NCBI GenBank assembly: GCA_944325545.1
Contig: CALVAM010000004.1
Coordinates: 35,086-99,085, forward strand
From: Candidatus Gastranaerophilales bacterium
Lineage (GTDB): Bacteria; Cyanobacteriota; Vampirovibrionia; Gastranaerophilales; Gastranaerophilaceae
Direction: 5' to 3'
DNA: 64,000 bases
The notes beneath the pieces were generated by a model. It saw only the letters and a program-made list of their open reading frames with translations, was not told the DNA's origin and did not search any database. Made by a program: the position numbers and the translations under genes. Below, piece by piece: positions 41,519 through 46,571 of this stretch (positions within the stretch are counted from its first letter, which is position 1; each line of letters opens with the position of its first letter).

Positions 41519-41552
41519 AAAAGAGCCTTCCTTTAAAGGAAGGCTTTTTTTT
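41516..41552. terminator. Bidirectional terminator between clpX and the EF-hand protein gene
   Basis: AGCCTTCC (41524-41531) and GGAAGGCT (41538-41545) form an 8-bp stem around TTTAAA, with an A run on the left and eight T on the right, so it serves both strands. It ends clpX on the plus strand and overlaps the stop of the minus-strand gene. Confidence 0.85.
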
Positions 41553-43896
41553 ATGCTAGTCTATTATATTCTGCTAAGATATCGTCAACTAAGCCTCTGA
41601 AACTTACAAGATAAACGTTGTAGTTTTTATTATATGTGTCTTCATATCTAACAATCGCATTATTTGTACAATTACCATTTTGGATTTCGCTGGCTGCATA
41701 ACGAGCTAATTTATCTTTTTCCCAGTTTTCCTTAATCTTTGTATGTTCTAAATTATTATATTTATTTTGAACATTAGTTGCGGCTTGTAATAAGATTGTA
41801 CGATCAAATTCTGTTCCTGAATTTAATAACGCCCCTGTGATCATATTTATTAAGCAACCCAATCTTTTTTTAGCTAAGTCGTCATCAGTGTAATTACCAC
41901 TTTCTCTATGTAATTGAATAACAGCATTGTTATTGTATAAGTCTGCAAAATTAGAAGCAGAAACTTGAGTATTTTCAGCAGGAACTGTTGTACCGAATAC
42001 TTCTAAGTGTCCTCCACTTCCATCACCAACTCCATTAAAGTTAGCGGTTTCAAGTACATCTGCTGCGGTTATTTGTTTTTCTTCAAATTTAATTGTTACA
42101 GATTTTGTTCCAACCAAAATTCCGTCAATAGTTACATTAAATATTACTGAGAATGAAGAGTTGGCTTTTTGGCTATTTATTGTTATTTTTCCAGTATCAT
42201 CAATTGTCGCTATACTTGTATTACTTGAAGTATACTTAATTCTATCTGAGGTAATAGTTTTAACATTACCACTCGGATCTTTAAATTGAGGATTTAACGT
42301 AAATTCTCCGATATTTCCTTCTTCAAGAGTAATTGTATCTGCAATGCCCCAATCTCCATTAGATATTGTAAGTTCGCTTGCGTCACCATATGTATCTAGT
42401 AATTTTTTAACTTGATCGATTTTATCTTTAATTTGACTAGGGGTTAATTCTGAGATTGTAGTTTTATAACTTTTACCATTGAATACAGATTCTACAGCAT
42501 TTTTAAATAAATCATTTTTGCTGGAGATAGCATCTAAATATTTGTTTGCGGCATCTTTGTGGGCTTGTTCGGATTTATCATCATCAGGTTCATTATTTGC
42601 AGCAACGTACAACATATCATATAAATCATTTAGTTCACTTAAACTTAAATCCCCTAAGCCGTTTTCATAGAATTCCATAATTCGGCTTTGGATTTGTTTT
42701 ACAGCCCAGTCTAACATAGCATCAGTATCTAAATTCCCATCAACAGAGAATTCTCCTGATGTAACTTGAGTAATTAATTCAGCTTCAATATCATCCATTA
42801 CATCTAAGTATCTACCATCATTTTTAATTAAATCAGCTAAAGATTGATTTATTTCAGATGCAACTCTGTTATATAAATCATCACCTTTTAATAATTCTTT
42901 TGCTGTAACAACATCTATGACTTCTTTATATTGTTCACTATTAGTAAAGTTTTCATAAGTATATCCTTTTATTGTTTCGAAGTCATTAAATTTCGCACCA
43001 GAAAGAATGTTGTTTATAAGCTCATTAACTGCGTTATCATATAATTCTTTATTTGATTCATATCCAGTTTCATTTTGAACATTTTCAAAAGCTGTTTGTA
43101 AAGTTTTTGTTAAATAAGTTTTTTGTAAATCATTAAGTGCAGTTGCATCATTTACAGAATAACCATATGCACTTAAATCAAAGGCATTATCTTCTTTTAC
43201 TCCGGCAGTAGCTAAATATGCGTCAACGATTAATTGAACTGTTGATTTGATATCCTCAGCAGTGCTTCCTTCCGGAATATTTTGAATATAATTGCTGATG
43301 ATTCCTTGTAAAGTTTTATCTTCAAGGTAAGAATAATTATATTCTTTCATAAAATCTTTTAATTCAGTATTTAAGTATTCATCAGCAACACAGTCTGCAG
43401 TTGTTTTGTTTTGAACACTTTCTGACATACTTTCTAAATAAGCTAACAAATCTTCTTTAACACCACCATTTTTAATAAAAGTTTCAGTTAAGTTTGCTAA
43501 ACTTTGGTTTACAGACTGTTTCCAACGAGAACTGTCTGATACAACACTTGGTGCTGATAAAGTTGAAGTGTAATCATTTAGAATTTCATACATTTCAATT
43601 TTGAGGTTCATATTTGTAATTTCTTTTGAGTCAAGTGCATTTTTATTTTTAAAGTTTGTTCCTGTTATATTACCGGTTTGAGTAGTATCAATATTTTTCC
43701 AGAATTCATTGATTAAATCTGTTTGCTTAGAAGTTTCACCATTCCAACCTTCTAAACTTTCCCAATCAAATTCAGCAGCTAAAAAATCTCTGAATTCTGA
43801 TTTTAAAATTGTTCCATCATTGTTTGTGTCCATTTCTGTTTTCCAGTCAGGACGTTCTGCTAAAAATTGATAAACTCTTGAAATTTCGTTTGACAT
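41551..43896 (-). CDS. Large EF-hand protein with Ig-like domain (sigma-28 promoter), paralogue 1
   Basis: No named family is recognised. The 781-aa protein starts with one canonical calcium-binding EF-hand loop (residues 23-34, D-x-N-x-D-G-x-I-x3-E) and a degenerate second loop near 71-83. A long helical region (about 90-450) follows. Near 540-625 lies a BIG2-type bacterial Ig-like region (YTSSNTSIATIDDTGKITIN). There is no signal peptide and no membrane segment. The first 450 residues are closely similar to the next minus-strand gene, while the C-terminal third is different. A consensus flagellar sigma-28 promoter lies 45 bases upstream, so it is likely made with late flagellar genes; it may be exported by the flagellar apparatus or act at the surface. 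Confidence 0.7.
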   Translation of the reverse strand: MSNEISRVYQFLAERPDWKTEMDTNNDGTILKSEFRDFLAAEFDWESLEGWNGETSKQTDLINEFWKNIDTTQTGNITGTNFKNKNALDSKEITNMNLKIEMYEILNDYTSTLSAPSVVSDSSRWKQSVNQSLANLTETFIKNGGVKEDLLAYLESMSESVQNKTTADCVADEYLNTELKDFMKEYNYSYLEDKTLQGIISNYIQNIPEGSTAEDIKSTVQLIVDAYLATAGVKEDNAFDLSAYGYSVNDATALNDLQKTYLTKTLQTAFENVQNETGYESNKELYDNAVNELINNILSGAKFNDFETIKGYTYENFTNSEQYKEVIDVVTAKELLKGDDLYNRVASEINQSLADLIKNDGRYLDVMDDIEAELITQVTSGEFSVDGNLDTDAMLDWAVKQIQSRIMEFYENGLGDLSLSELNDLYDMLYVAANNEPDDDKSEQAHKDAANKYLDAISSKNDLFKNAVESVFNGKSYKTTISELTPSQIKDKIDQVKKLLDTYGDASELTISNGDWGIADTITLEEGNIGEFTLNPQFKDPSGNVKTITSDRIKYTSSNTSIATIDDTGKITINSQKANSSFSVIFNVTIDGILVGTKSVTIKFEEKQITAADVLETANFNGVGDGSGGHLEVFGTTVPAENTQVSASNFADLYNNNAVIQLHRESGNYTDDDLAKKRLGCLINMITGALLNSGTEFDRTILLQAATNVQNKYNNLEHTKIKENWEKDKLARYAASEIQNGNCTNNAIVRYEDTYNKNYNVYLVSFRGLVDDILAEYNRLA

Positions 43897-43940: not shown

Positions 43941-43967
43941 ATATCGGCATATTTTATTTAAACTTTA
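43941..43967 (-). promoter_or_regulatory. Flagellar sigma-28 (FliA) promoter, copy 1
   Basis: On the minus strand it reads TAAAGTTT (43967-43960), 11 bases, GCCGATAT (43948-43941). The enteric FliA consensus is TAAAGTTT, 11 bases, GCCGATAA, so 15 of 16 bases match with exact spacing. The predicted start gives a leader of about 35-40 bases with AAGGAG before the ATG of the 43896 gene. TTTGTAAA direct repeats lie just upstream. Confidence 0.85.
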
Positions 43968-44031
43968 GAGAAAATAAGATAATTTTTACAAAAGTTTACA
44001 AATTTGCTTAGGTTTTATTTGTCGTCTCTTT

Positions 44032-46455
44032 TTATAAAGAAACATATAAAAGTTTGTCAAAGCAATAAAGTGTAAGTTGTACTAGTTCATCCATATGTAT
44101 TTTGAAGTTATCATCGTCTCTTGAATCTTTTCCGCTCCAGTCTCTTTTAGAATCATTGTCTTCAACTCTTGCAGAACCATTATTAGTACCGTAAGGACAG
44201 TCATGTTCATTATTTATACAAATTTGAATTGCTTCTTGTTGTGCATTTCTAAATATATTTGTAATAGTATCAGGTGCAATATATGAATATTTGTTGATTA
44301 GTCTATGTAATAATTCATCCATTGTGACTTGATAATCAGGATCATCTTTCGTATTTTGAAGATGCACAACTCCGTTAGCATCAACCGTAGCACCGCCTTT
44401 GTAGATTATGTTTTCATCGTTGCCTATAGTAGTGTTAGTATTATAATGAGTTAAACCATTAGTTAAGCTTGTATCTGTATATGATGTATGTTCAGTATAT
44501 GCTTTTATTAGTTCAGGATGTTCTTTTAGTTTTTCCATTATATTTTTAATATTATCAAGTACTGTAGATACAAAATTTGCAGTAGAATTAGAGGTTGATG
44601 AGTTATACGTATTGTATGCTGAAATCCAAGCTGCTTGTATTATTTTATTTAAAATACTTTCTCCTCCAATGTTATTAAGAGCAGTAATTCCTTCTTTTGA
44701 TTTCTTTATTTCTTCTTTTACTTTTTGTGCAAGAGTATTAAATACTAAAGTGGTTGATTCTTCTTGGAATACTATATTTCCATTCGCATCTATGCCAAAT
44801 TCTGTATGAATTGTAGATTGTCCGTTTATTATTGTACTTACGCTAGAATATTTTACATTATTTGCACAATCTGAAATATTTTGTGCAGCACTGCTAATTT
44901 TTTCATTATTTTCTTTTTCTTCAATTTGTCTTCTTTCTTCTTCATCTATTTTTAAAGCATTTGTTTTTAATCTTGTCATAGCTGCATAAATTTCTGATGG
45001 GTACATATTTTTAATTCCATTTTTCCAATCTTCACCAAATTCATTTATTACAGCTTCTTTTAATTTATCAGAATTTTTAGAAATTAAAGCTTCACAATAT
45101 TTAATAGCTGCATTTTGTTGTGCTTCTTTTGATTTATCAGCATCAGCTTCATTAATTGCAACATTATATAACATATCGTATACAGCGTTTAATTCATTAA
45201 CTTCTATATTGCTTAATCCATTTTCATAGAATTCCATTATTCTGTTTTGGATTTGTTCGATAACCCAATCTAACATGGCATTTGTATCTAAATTCCCTTC
45301 AACAGAAAATTCGCCTGATTTTACTTTAGTAATTAATTCTGTTTCAATATTTTTTATTACTTTTAAATATTTACCATCATTTTTGATTAAATCTGCTAAT
45401 GATTGATTTATTTCAGAAGCTACTCTATTGTATAAATTATCACCTTTTAATAATTCTTTTGCTGTAACAACATCACTTACTTCTTTGTATTGTTCGCTAT
45501 TAGTAAACATTTCATAAGTATAATTTTTTATTGTTTCAAAATCATTAAATTTAGCATCTGAAAGAACTTTATTTATAAAGTCATTAACTGCATTATCATA
45601 TAATTCTTTGTTATTTTCGTAACCCATTGCATTTTTAACATTTTCTAACACTGTTTGTAGAGTTTTTGTTAAATATGTTTTTTGTAAGTCATTAAGTTTA
45701 GTAGTTTCGTCTACAGTGTATCCATAAGCGCTAAGATCAAAAGCATTATTTTCTTTTACTCCAGCAGTTGCTAAATATGCATTTACAATTGATTTTACTG
45801 TTGATTCAATTTCTTCTATAGAGTTTCCTTCCGGAATATTTTGAATGTAATTGCTGATTATTCCTTGTAAGGTTTGGTCTTCAAGGTATGAATAATCATA
45901 TTCTTTCATAAAATCTTTTAATTCATTATTTAAGTATTCGTCTGCGATATAATCTGCTGTAGCTTTATTTTGAATATTTTCTGACATACTTTCTAAATAA
46001 GCTAGCAAATCTTCTTTTATACCACCGTTTTTAATAAATGTCTCTGTTAAATTTGTTAAATTTTGTTTTACTATTTGTTTCCAACCGGTGCTATTTGAAA
46101 TAACACTTGGTGCTGATAATGTTGAAGTGTAATCATTTAAGATTTCATACATTTCAATTTTATTATTCATATTTGTAATTTCATTTGAATCAAGTGCGTT
46201 TTTATTTTTGAAAATAGTACCAGTCATGTCACCGGTTTTAGTTGTATCAATACTTTTCCAAAAATCATTGATTAAATCAGTTTGTTTAGAACTTTCTCCA
46301 TTCCATCCTTCTAAACTAGCCCAATCAAAATTTGCAGTCAAAAAGTCTCTACATTCTGCTTTTAAAATTGTTCCATCTTTATCTGTGTCCATTTCTGTTT
46401 TCCAATTTGGACGTTCTGATAAAAACAGATAAACTTTTGAGATATCACTTGACAT
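44032..46455 (-). CDS. Large EF-hand protein (sigma-28 promoter), paralogue 2
   Basis: This 807-aa protein is a paralogue of the 41551 product. Its EF-hand loop (residues 23-34, D-x-D-x-D-G-x-I-x3-E) and next 430 residues align with few gaps, including GWNGESSKQTDLIN, LLAYLESMSE and FYENGL. After about 480 the sequences part: here a Glu-rich helical stretch (EEERRQIEEKENNEK), then a Thr/Ser/Asn-rich region (NGLTHYNTNTTIGNDENIIY) without the Ig-like domain. No signal peptide is visible. Its promoter is also a sigma-28 type. The gene pair shares promoter and upstream repeats, so the duplication included the control region. Function unknown; calcium binding is inferred. Confidence 0.7.
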   Translation of the reverse strand: MSSDISKVYLFLSERPNWKTEMDTDKDGTILKAECRDFLTANFDWASLEGWNGESSKQTDLINDFWKSIDTTKTGDMTGTIFKNKNALDSNEITNMNNKIEMYEILNDYTSTLSAPSVISNSTGWKQIVKQNLTNLTETFIKNGGIKEDLLAYLESMSENIQNKATADYIADEYLNNELKDFMKEYDYSYLEDQTLQGIISNYIQNIPEGNSIEEIESTVKSIVNAYLATAGVKENNAFDLSAYGYTVDETTKLNDLQKTYLTKTLQTVLENVKNAMGYENNKELYDNAVNDFINKVLSDAKFNDFETIKNYTYEMFTNSEQYKEVSDVVTAKELLKGDNLYNRVASEINQSLADLIKNDGKYLKVIKNIETELITKVKSGEFSVEGNLDTNAMLDWVIEQIQNRIMEFYENGLSNIEVNELNAVYDMLYNVAINEADADKSKEAQQNAAIKYCEALISKNSDKLKEAVINEFGEDWKNGIKNMYPSEIYAAMTRLKTNALKIDEEERRQIEEKENNEKISSAAQNISDCANNVKYSSVSTIINGQSTIHTEFGIDANGNIVFQEESTTLVFNTLAQKVKEEIKKSKEGITALNNIGGESILNKIIQAAWISAYNTYNSSTSNSTANFVSTVLDNIKNIMEKLKEHPELIKAYTEHTSYTDTSLTNGLTHYNTNTTIGNDENIIYKGGATVDANGVVHLQNTKDDPDYQVTMDELLHRLINKYSYIAPDTITNIFRNAQQEAIQICINNEHDCPYGTNNGSARVEDNDSKRDWSGKDSRDDDNFKIHMDELVQLTLYCFDKLLYVSL

Positions 46456-46495
46456 AAATTTGACTCCATTTTCCCTATATTTCCCTATAGTATGA

Positions 46496-46522
46496 ATATC
46501 GGCAGATTTTATTTAAACTTTA
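46496..46522 (-). promoter_or_regulatory. Flagellar sigma-28 (FliA) promoter, copy 2
   Basis: On the minus strand TAAAGTTT (46522-46515), 11 bases, GCCGATAT (46503-46496), again 15 of 16 matches to the FliA consensus. It lies 41 bases ahead of the ATG at 46455. Upstream is the same TTTGTAAA direct repeat seen in copy 1. Confidence 0.85.
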
Positions 46523-46571
46523 GAGAAAATAAGAAAATGTTTACAAAAGTTTACAAAGCTTGTTTATATTA

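What the first reader, a model, noticed from the sequence alone, without database searches (positions are those of the whole stretch)
43941..46522. Two near-perfect flagellar sigma-28 promoters drive uncharacterised giant EF-hand proteins
Both large minus-strand genes are preceded by TAAAGTTT, exactly 11 bases, GCCGATAT, differing from the enteric FliA consensus by one base, at 41 and 45 bases from the ATG. The proteins have a canonical calcium-binding loop at residues 23-34, no signal peptide and no membrane segment. Late flagellar control plus no Sec signal suggests they are flagellar-export substrates, or calcium-dependent surface or effector proteins of a motile cell. I know of no described family with this combination.
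Basis: partly seen in the sequence, partly recalled or inferred. Interest (0 to 1): 0.8.

Follow-up and report, generated by a model that had tools for sequence, protein, structure and literature searches.

The report
Flagellar-timed calcium-binding proteins, probably exported
Two large proteins, found in only one bacterial genus in our searches, start with a predicted calcium-binding domain and sit behind the same flagellar-type promoter sequence that precedes flagellin and filament-cap genes in sister species, so they are likely made late in flagellum building and are predicted to leave the cell through a flagellar-type export machine.

Summary
Both strings are exact, one base from the published sigma-28 consensus, and the genome has fliA. 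The family occurs in 61 of 65 genomes of its genus and 0 of 79 others. All 30 homologue loci inspected carry the promoter; of 206 background ORFs two reach 13 of 16 bases or more. A slightly wider string occurs 8-37 times in each of 65 genus genomes and precedes flagellin and fliD in relatives. Not in the finding: (1) a TGTAA direct repeat 33 and 23 bases before the -35 octamer of both window genes and many sister promoters, absent from the flagellin and HD-GYP promoters seen; (2) an excess of EF-hand-type loops among products of these promoters, 5 of 15 at home against 0 of 206, one with a calpain-like predicted fold. Export is inferred, not shown; there are two candidate export gates, one flagellar and one divergent. 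The window loop is EF-hand-like, not textbook. Closest known: Campylobacter sigma-28 'Fed' proteins. A new variant of a known kind.

The parts
41551..43896 (-). gene 1, 781-aa protein: EF-hand-like head, shared helical front, C-terminal part with a weak Ig-like (Big_2) stretch
   Evidence: Big_2 15.5 bits here, below the 22.8 cut-off; over it in homologues P0009 and P0016
44032..46455 (-). gene 2, 807-aa protein: same front (74% identity over query residues 1-497), different helical C-terminal part
43941..43967 (-). sigma-28 type promoter of gene 1: -35 octamer 43960-43967, -10 octamer 43941-43948
46496..46522 (-). sigma-28 type promoter of gene 2: -35 octamer 46515-46522, -10 octamer 46496-46503
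43986..44000 (-). TGTAA tandem box of gene 1 (copies 43986-43990 and 43996-44000), putative activator site
   Evidence: sequence; positions -23/-33 as
46541..46555 (-). TGTAA tandem box of gene 2 (copies 46541-46545 and 46551-46555), putative activator site
   Evidence: sequence; positions -23/-33 as
43795..43830 (-). EF-hand-like loop of gene 1, residues 23-34
46354..46389 (-). EF-hand-like loop of gene 2, residues 23-34

Best explanation
The two genes belong to a family seen only in one genus, sit behind sigma-28 (FliA) type promoters, and are likely switched on late in flagellum assembly and predicted to be exported without a Sec signal through a flagellar-type type III machine, to act as calcium-responsive surface or effector proteins. 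Shown: the promoter strings, the fliA gene, promoter conservation before the homologues inspected, the same string before flagellin and fliD in relatives, the TGTAA tandem box, and the absence of hydrophobic export signals. Predicted from models and weak profiles: the EF-hand head. Inferred: that FliA transcribes them, that an activator binds the tandem box and sets this subset apart from flagellin, that the proteins leave the cell, and that calcium (high outside, low inside) folds or activates them after export. The shared ~500-residue front and differing C-terminal parts suggest a common front with exchangeable working ends.
For: Exact promoters; 30 of 30 homologue loci with the promoter 34-88 nt before the start against 2 of 206 background ORFs at 13 or more; fliA over cut-off; the wider string in 65 of 65 genus genomes, 1456 sites, reversed control 20; the string before flagellin (L125, L134; L165 with one mismatch) and, 140 nt upstream, fliD (L116), Pfam-confirmed; tandem box; EF-type loops in 5 of 15 site products at home and 5 of 18 in G053 against 0 of 206 background ORFs; hydrophobic N terminus in 1 of 15 and 1 of 18 site products against 39 of 171 background ORFs; N-termini of 14 chosen regulon proteins richer in N, S, T, Q than 171 background ORFs (0.33 against 0.21, p 1.5e-4); two flagellar-type export gates.
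Against: No export, transcript or calcium data. The N terminus is modelled as helices of the EF-hand domain (pLDDT 77-90), unlike a typical disordered type III signal. Pfam EF-hand scores are below cut-off and the loop fails a strict pattern. 8 of 9 home flagellin hits were examined and only one has even a degraded copy of the promoter (12 of 16). One conserved regulon member (L084/L163) does have a signal-peptide-like N terminus. Of 9 EF-hand genes found by Pfam at home, 5 have no such promoter. In 30 sites sampled one per genome only 2 products had an EF loop. Homologues are related, so 30 of 30 is not 30 independent events.
Confidence: 0.55

Rival explanations
1. The proteins are sigma-28 dependent but stay inside: large helical calcium sensors or scaffolds made together with the flagellum that tune motility or cell behaviour.
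For: A GAF-HD-GYP gene, presumably cytosolic signalling, sits behind the same promoter type (L090 at home, L142 in G053); the N terminus is structured; no export was shown.
Against: HD-GYP promoters seen lack the TGTAA box that the window genes have; Ig-like (Big_2) stretches in homologues and a LysM domain in another EF-loop regulon product (L152) fit the outside better; C-terminal parts are swapped.
Confidence: 0.25
2. They are cargo of the second, divergent type III apparatus (contigs 19 and 5), not of the flagellum itself.
For: A second FliE-FliF-FliH-FlhA and FliO-P-Q-R set with a FliM/N-like protein exists; 81 of 97 relatives give two or more FliF matches and 77 of 97 two or more FliP matches. 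Its fliE start has the best background sigma-28-like score, 14 of 16, though with a 10-base spacer and no tandem box.
Against: That apparatus occurs far outside the genus while the protein family does not; fliD, a flagellar substrate, shares promoter and box.
Confidence: 0.14
3. The promoter string is read by another sigma factor or needs mainly the TGTAA-box activator, so the genes are not flagellar-timed.
For: Eight further sigma-70 family hits in the genome; most home flagellins examined lack the string; parts of the TGTAA block are as conserved as parts of the promoter.
Against: Both octamers match the FliA consensus; flagellin and fliD carry the string in relatives; only one of the nine sigma hits passes the FliA/WhiG cut-off.
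Confidence: 0.06

Closest known systems
Campylobacter jejuni flagellar coexpressed determinants (Feds) and non-flagellar proteins secreted by the flagellar type III system (PMC6196472 passages; PMC5223770 abstract)
   Same: Non-flagellar genes placed in the sigma-28 regulon; some such proteins leave through the flagellar export machine in Campylobacter
   Different: No sequence comparison was made; an EF-hand head, 780-810 aa modular size and the TGTAA tandem box are not part of what I saw on Feds; export is not shown here
E. coli aer and trg promoters, sigma-28 promoters directly activated by CRP (PMC2859248 passages)
   Same: Sigma-28 octamers plus an upstream activator site at a fixed distance
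   Different: There the site is a CRP site centred at -49.5; here a 10-base-period TGTAA direct repeat whose binding protein is unknown
EF-hand proteins (secretagogin, FKBP22)
   Different: Loop position 9 is hydrophobic; Pfam scores below cut-off
XopAW family type III calcium-binding effector (NCBIfam NF041410)
   Same: Weak hit of regulon member L032 over its EF-hands (E 0.0065, 16.3 bits)
   Different: Far below its cut-off of 120 bits; no hit for the window proteins
Calpains
   Same: Regulon member L032:506-2017 has EF-hands, invariant Q149, C155, W156 and H456, Asn/Asp before invariant P473, and calpain cores as best PDB matches (E 1.7e-4)
   Different: About 9% identity, 17 A rmsd over the whole alignment, EF-hands at the N terminus, no Pfam protease hit; it is not one of the window genes

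Membership tests
sigma-28 (FliA) class III promoter | TAAAGTTT and GCCGATAA octamers 11 bases apart | tested here: met
   15 of 16 bases at both genes
sigma-28 (FliA) class III promoter | a fliA gene in the genome | tested here: met
   TIGR02479 233 bits against 189.6; PRK06986 FliA 210 against 201
sigma-28 (FliA) class III promoter | same string before known class III flagellar genes in the clade | tested here: met
   flagellin in L125, L134 (exact) and L165 (one mismatch), fliD in L116 at 140 nt; at home only one degraded copy among 8 flagellins examined
sigma-28 (FliA) class III promoter | transcript lost without FliA | not testable with these tools
   no expression data
EF-hand superfamily | Pfam EF-hand over the curated cut-off | tested here: not met
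   best EF-hand_7 20.1 bits against 30 and EF-hand_1 19.7 against 25.4 (gene 1)
EF-hand superfamily | paired helix-loop-helix fold | tested here: inconclusive
EF-hand superfamily | calcium binding | not testable with these tools
   needs a binding assay
Fed-type flagellar-exported protein | gene in the sigma-28 regulon, not needed for flagellum structure | tested here: inconclusive
   promoter met; the family has no recognised flagellar domain; dispensability untested
Fed-type flagellar-exported protein | secretion dependent on the flagellar export gate | not testable with these tools
   needs a secretome
Known protein family for the whole protein | hit over a curated cut-off in Pfam or NCBIfam | tested here: not met
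   none for either window protein

The most novel reading that the evidence does not exclude
This genus of Gastranaerophilales runs a secretion programme not described before: sigma-28 plus an activator on a TGTAA tandem box turns on up to a few dozen genes per genome, many encoding EF-hand-headed proteins, among them a calpain-like protease and the window's large modular proteins; they are fired out through a flagellar-type export machine, possibly the second one, and are switched on by calcium outside the cell.
Probability: 0.35. Interest if true: 0.87.

Novelty: new variant of a known kind. Interest (0 to 1): 0.72.

Why it matters
In the two papers on this lineage that I saw in passages, flagella are discussed as a motility trait, and one found complete flagellar gene sets in only three of nine Gastranaerophilales genomes (PMC4040986; PMC5877343). 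A sizeable sigma-28 regulon made largely of unknown proteins without signal peptides, many of EF-hand type, would make the flagellar system a protein-delivery route in uncultured relatives of cyanobacteria. The promoter plus tandem box gives a sequence handle to list the candidate secretome of any genome in the genus.

Full report
What is there. Two neighbouring minus-strand genes, 41551-43896 (781 aa) and 44032-46455 (807 aa), each follow an exact TAAAGTTT-N11-GCCGATAT, at 43941-43967 and 46496-46522. The published E. coli sigma-28 consensus is TAAAGTTT-n11-GCCGATAA (PMC2859248, passages). The proteins match at 74% over residues 1-497 and then diverge: gene 1 ends with a part carrying a weak Ig-like hit, gene 2 with a different helical part.

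Whose genome. The home genome has 1.82 Mb in 37 contigs and is 99.6% complete.

Chance and conservation. Genome-wide, TAAAGTTT-N11-GCCGATA gives 16 sites with at most one mismatch and 0 in the backwards control. The family (alignment of 35 proteins) matches in 61 of 65 genomes of the genus, home included, and in 0 of the other 79 searched. The 30 loci which that call returned (29 from 29 other genomes, one at home) all carry the promoter 34-88 nt before the start, 13-16 of 16 bases, spacer 11 in 23 and 12 in 7. Of 206 background ORFs only two reach 13 or 14. TAAAGTTT-N11-GCCGWWA without mismatch occurs in 65 of 65 genus genomes (1456 sites, median 22, range 8-37, backwards control 20) and in 36 of 79 others (102 sites, control 8).

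Is it sigma-28? One gene passes the FliA/WhiG cut-off and also that of PRK06986 FliA. In relatives the string lies 43-46 nt before flagellin (L125, L134 exact; L165 one mismatch) and 140 nt before fliD (L116), all over Pfam cut-offs. At home, of 9 flagellin-domain hits 8 were examined and only one has a degraded copy, 12 of 16. So at home this promoter stands before more unknown genes than flagellins.

A tandem box. Lining up the homologue promoters showed a second conserved block. TGTAA starts 23 and 33 bases (give or take one) before the -35 octamer. At home the proximal copy is present at 18 of 22 sites and both at 11; in sister genome G053 at 21 and 11 of 27; in 26 usable loci of the family in other genomes at 25 and 15; in 30 exact sites taken one per genome (28 in the genus, 2 outside) at 15 and 11. 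It is missing before the four flagellins seen (L035, L165, L125, L134) and the five GAF-HD-GYP-like genes seen (L090, L142, L119, L135, L138; the last three named by resemblance) but present before fliD. Activator-dependent sigma-28 promoters are known (aer, trg), so an unknown activator is the natural reading (inference). The one-mismatch lists include chance sites: the backwards control gave 2 at home and 8 in G053.

The regulon. By resemblance, home and G053 share many products behind the string: MGMxASQ proteins, a 663-aa coiled protein, several small unknown proteins and GAF-HD-GYP. Using one EF-type loop pattern on the first 130 residues, 5 of 15 home products of 100 aa or more (22 sites) and 5 of 18 in G053 (27 sites) match, against 0 of 206 background ORFs and 2 of 30 in the one-per-genome sample, 6 of which had no ORF. 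With a strict pattern the counts are 2 of 15 and 3 of 18, without the window genes. A Pfam EF-hand scan of the home genome gave 11 matches in 9 genes: 3 behind the string, one with a 13-of-16 site, 5 without. So not all EF-hand proteins belong. L032:506-2017 has EF-hands over the Pfam cut-off, a 12-sequence family with invariant Q, C-W and H, and a model (pLDDT 88.8, pTM 0.85) whose best PDB matches are calpain cores (E 1.7e-4, about 9% identity, large rmsd over the full alignment).

The head domain. Pfam EF-hand scores are below cut-off, but the gene 2 model (pLDDT 85.4; pTM 0.51, so domain placement is uncertain) superposes residues 2-99 on EF-hand pairs. The long body has no clear match among solved folds.

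Export route. A flagellar set is split over contig 24 (fliO, fliP and flhA identified by profile; fliQ, fliR and flhB by eye) and contig 6 (fliF and fliI by profile; fliG and fliH by eye). A divergent second set is on contig 19 (FliE, FliF, FliH, FlhA) and contig 5 (FliM/N-like, FliO, FliP, FliQ, FliR), several below NCBI's flagellar cut-offs. Two or more FliF matches are seen in 81 of 97 and two or more FliP matches in 77 of 97 genomes. Either gate could carry the proteins; nothing here shows export. Two papers seen in passages (PMC4040986; PMC5877343) discuss flagella here as motility. Searches combining the clade's names with flagella, type III secretion, EF-hand, calcium-binding and sigma28 listed no title on such proteins.

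How it likely works. FliA is freed when the flagellar gate switches to late export (established for enteric bacteria, recalled). With an activator on the TGTAA box it would turn on this set together with fliD. The proteins, lacking Sec signals, would leave through a flagellar-type gate and meet high calcium outside, which would fold or activate the EF-hand head; the swapped ends would be the working parts. The first step is well supported by sequence; the later ones are inference.

Noticed in passing
L047:4026-10105 and L173:5931-10387 (home genome contigs 19 and 5): A second, divergent flagellar-type type III export set (FliE, FliF, FliH, FlhA; FliM/N-like, FliO, FliP, FliQ, FliR) beside the canonical one; two or more FliF in 81 of 97 and FliP in 77 of 97 relatives.
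   Followed up: partly
L049:9246-10727 (home genome contig 15): A 493-aa protein matching only the C-terminal half of the FlhA (FHIPEP) family, without its membrane part.
   Followed up: no
L032:506-2017 (home genome contig 27): EF-hand protein with a predicted calpain-like fold behind a one-mismatch sigma-28 string.
   Followed up: partly
L021:2020-3525 (home genome contig 1): EF-loop protein with an HELGH...EFYAD motif invariant in its 3 sequences, behind an exact sigma-28 string; Pfam metallopeptidase hits below cut-off.
   Followed up: partly
L024 (contig 2) compared with L032 (contig 27): Nearly identical promoter string before a 53-aa frame whose start resembles that of the L032 protein; possibly a decayed or shortened copy, not examined further.
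   Followed up: no
L029, L031, L146, L148, L114, L117, L139, L140: Recurring proteins starting MG(M/L)..SQ or similar with a coiled C terminus in those read in full, behind the string in several genomes; no Pfam family for the four scanned (L029, L031, L114, L139).
   Followed up: partly
Home genome, 9 flagellin-domain places: Nine flagellin-domain hits spread over six contigs (364, 376, 554, 355, 284, 588, 579 and 586 aa for the eight examined), mostly without the sigma-28 string.
   Followed up: partly
L105:727-1836 (home genome contig 8): 369-aa protein with EF-hands over the Pfam cut-off and a 13-of-16 sigma-28-like site 21 nt before its start.
   Followed up: no
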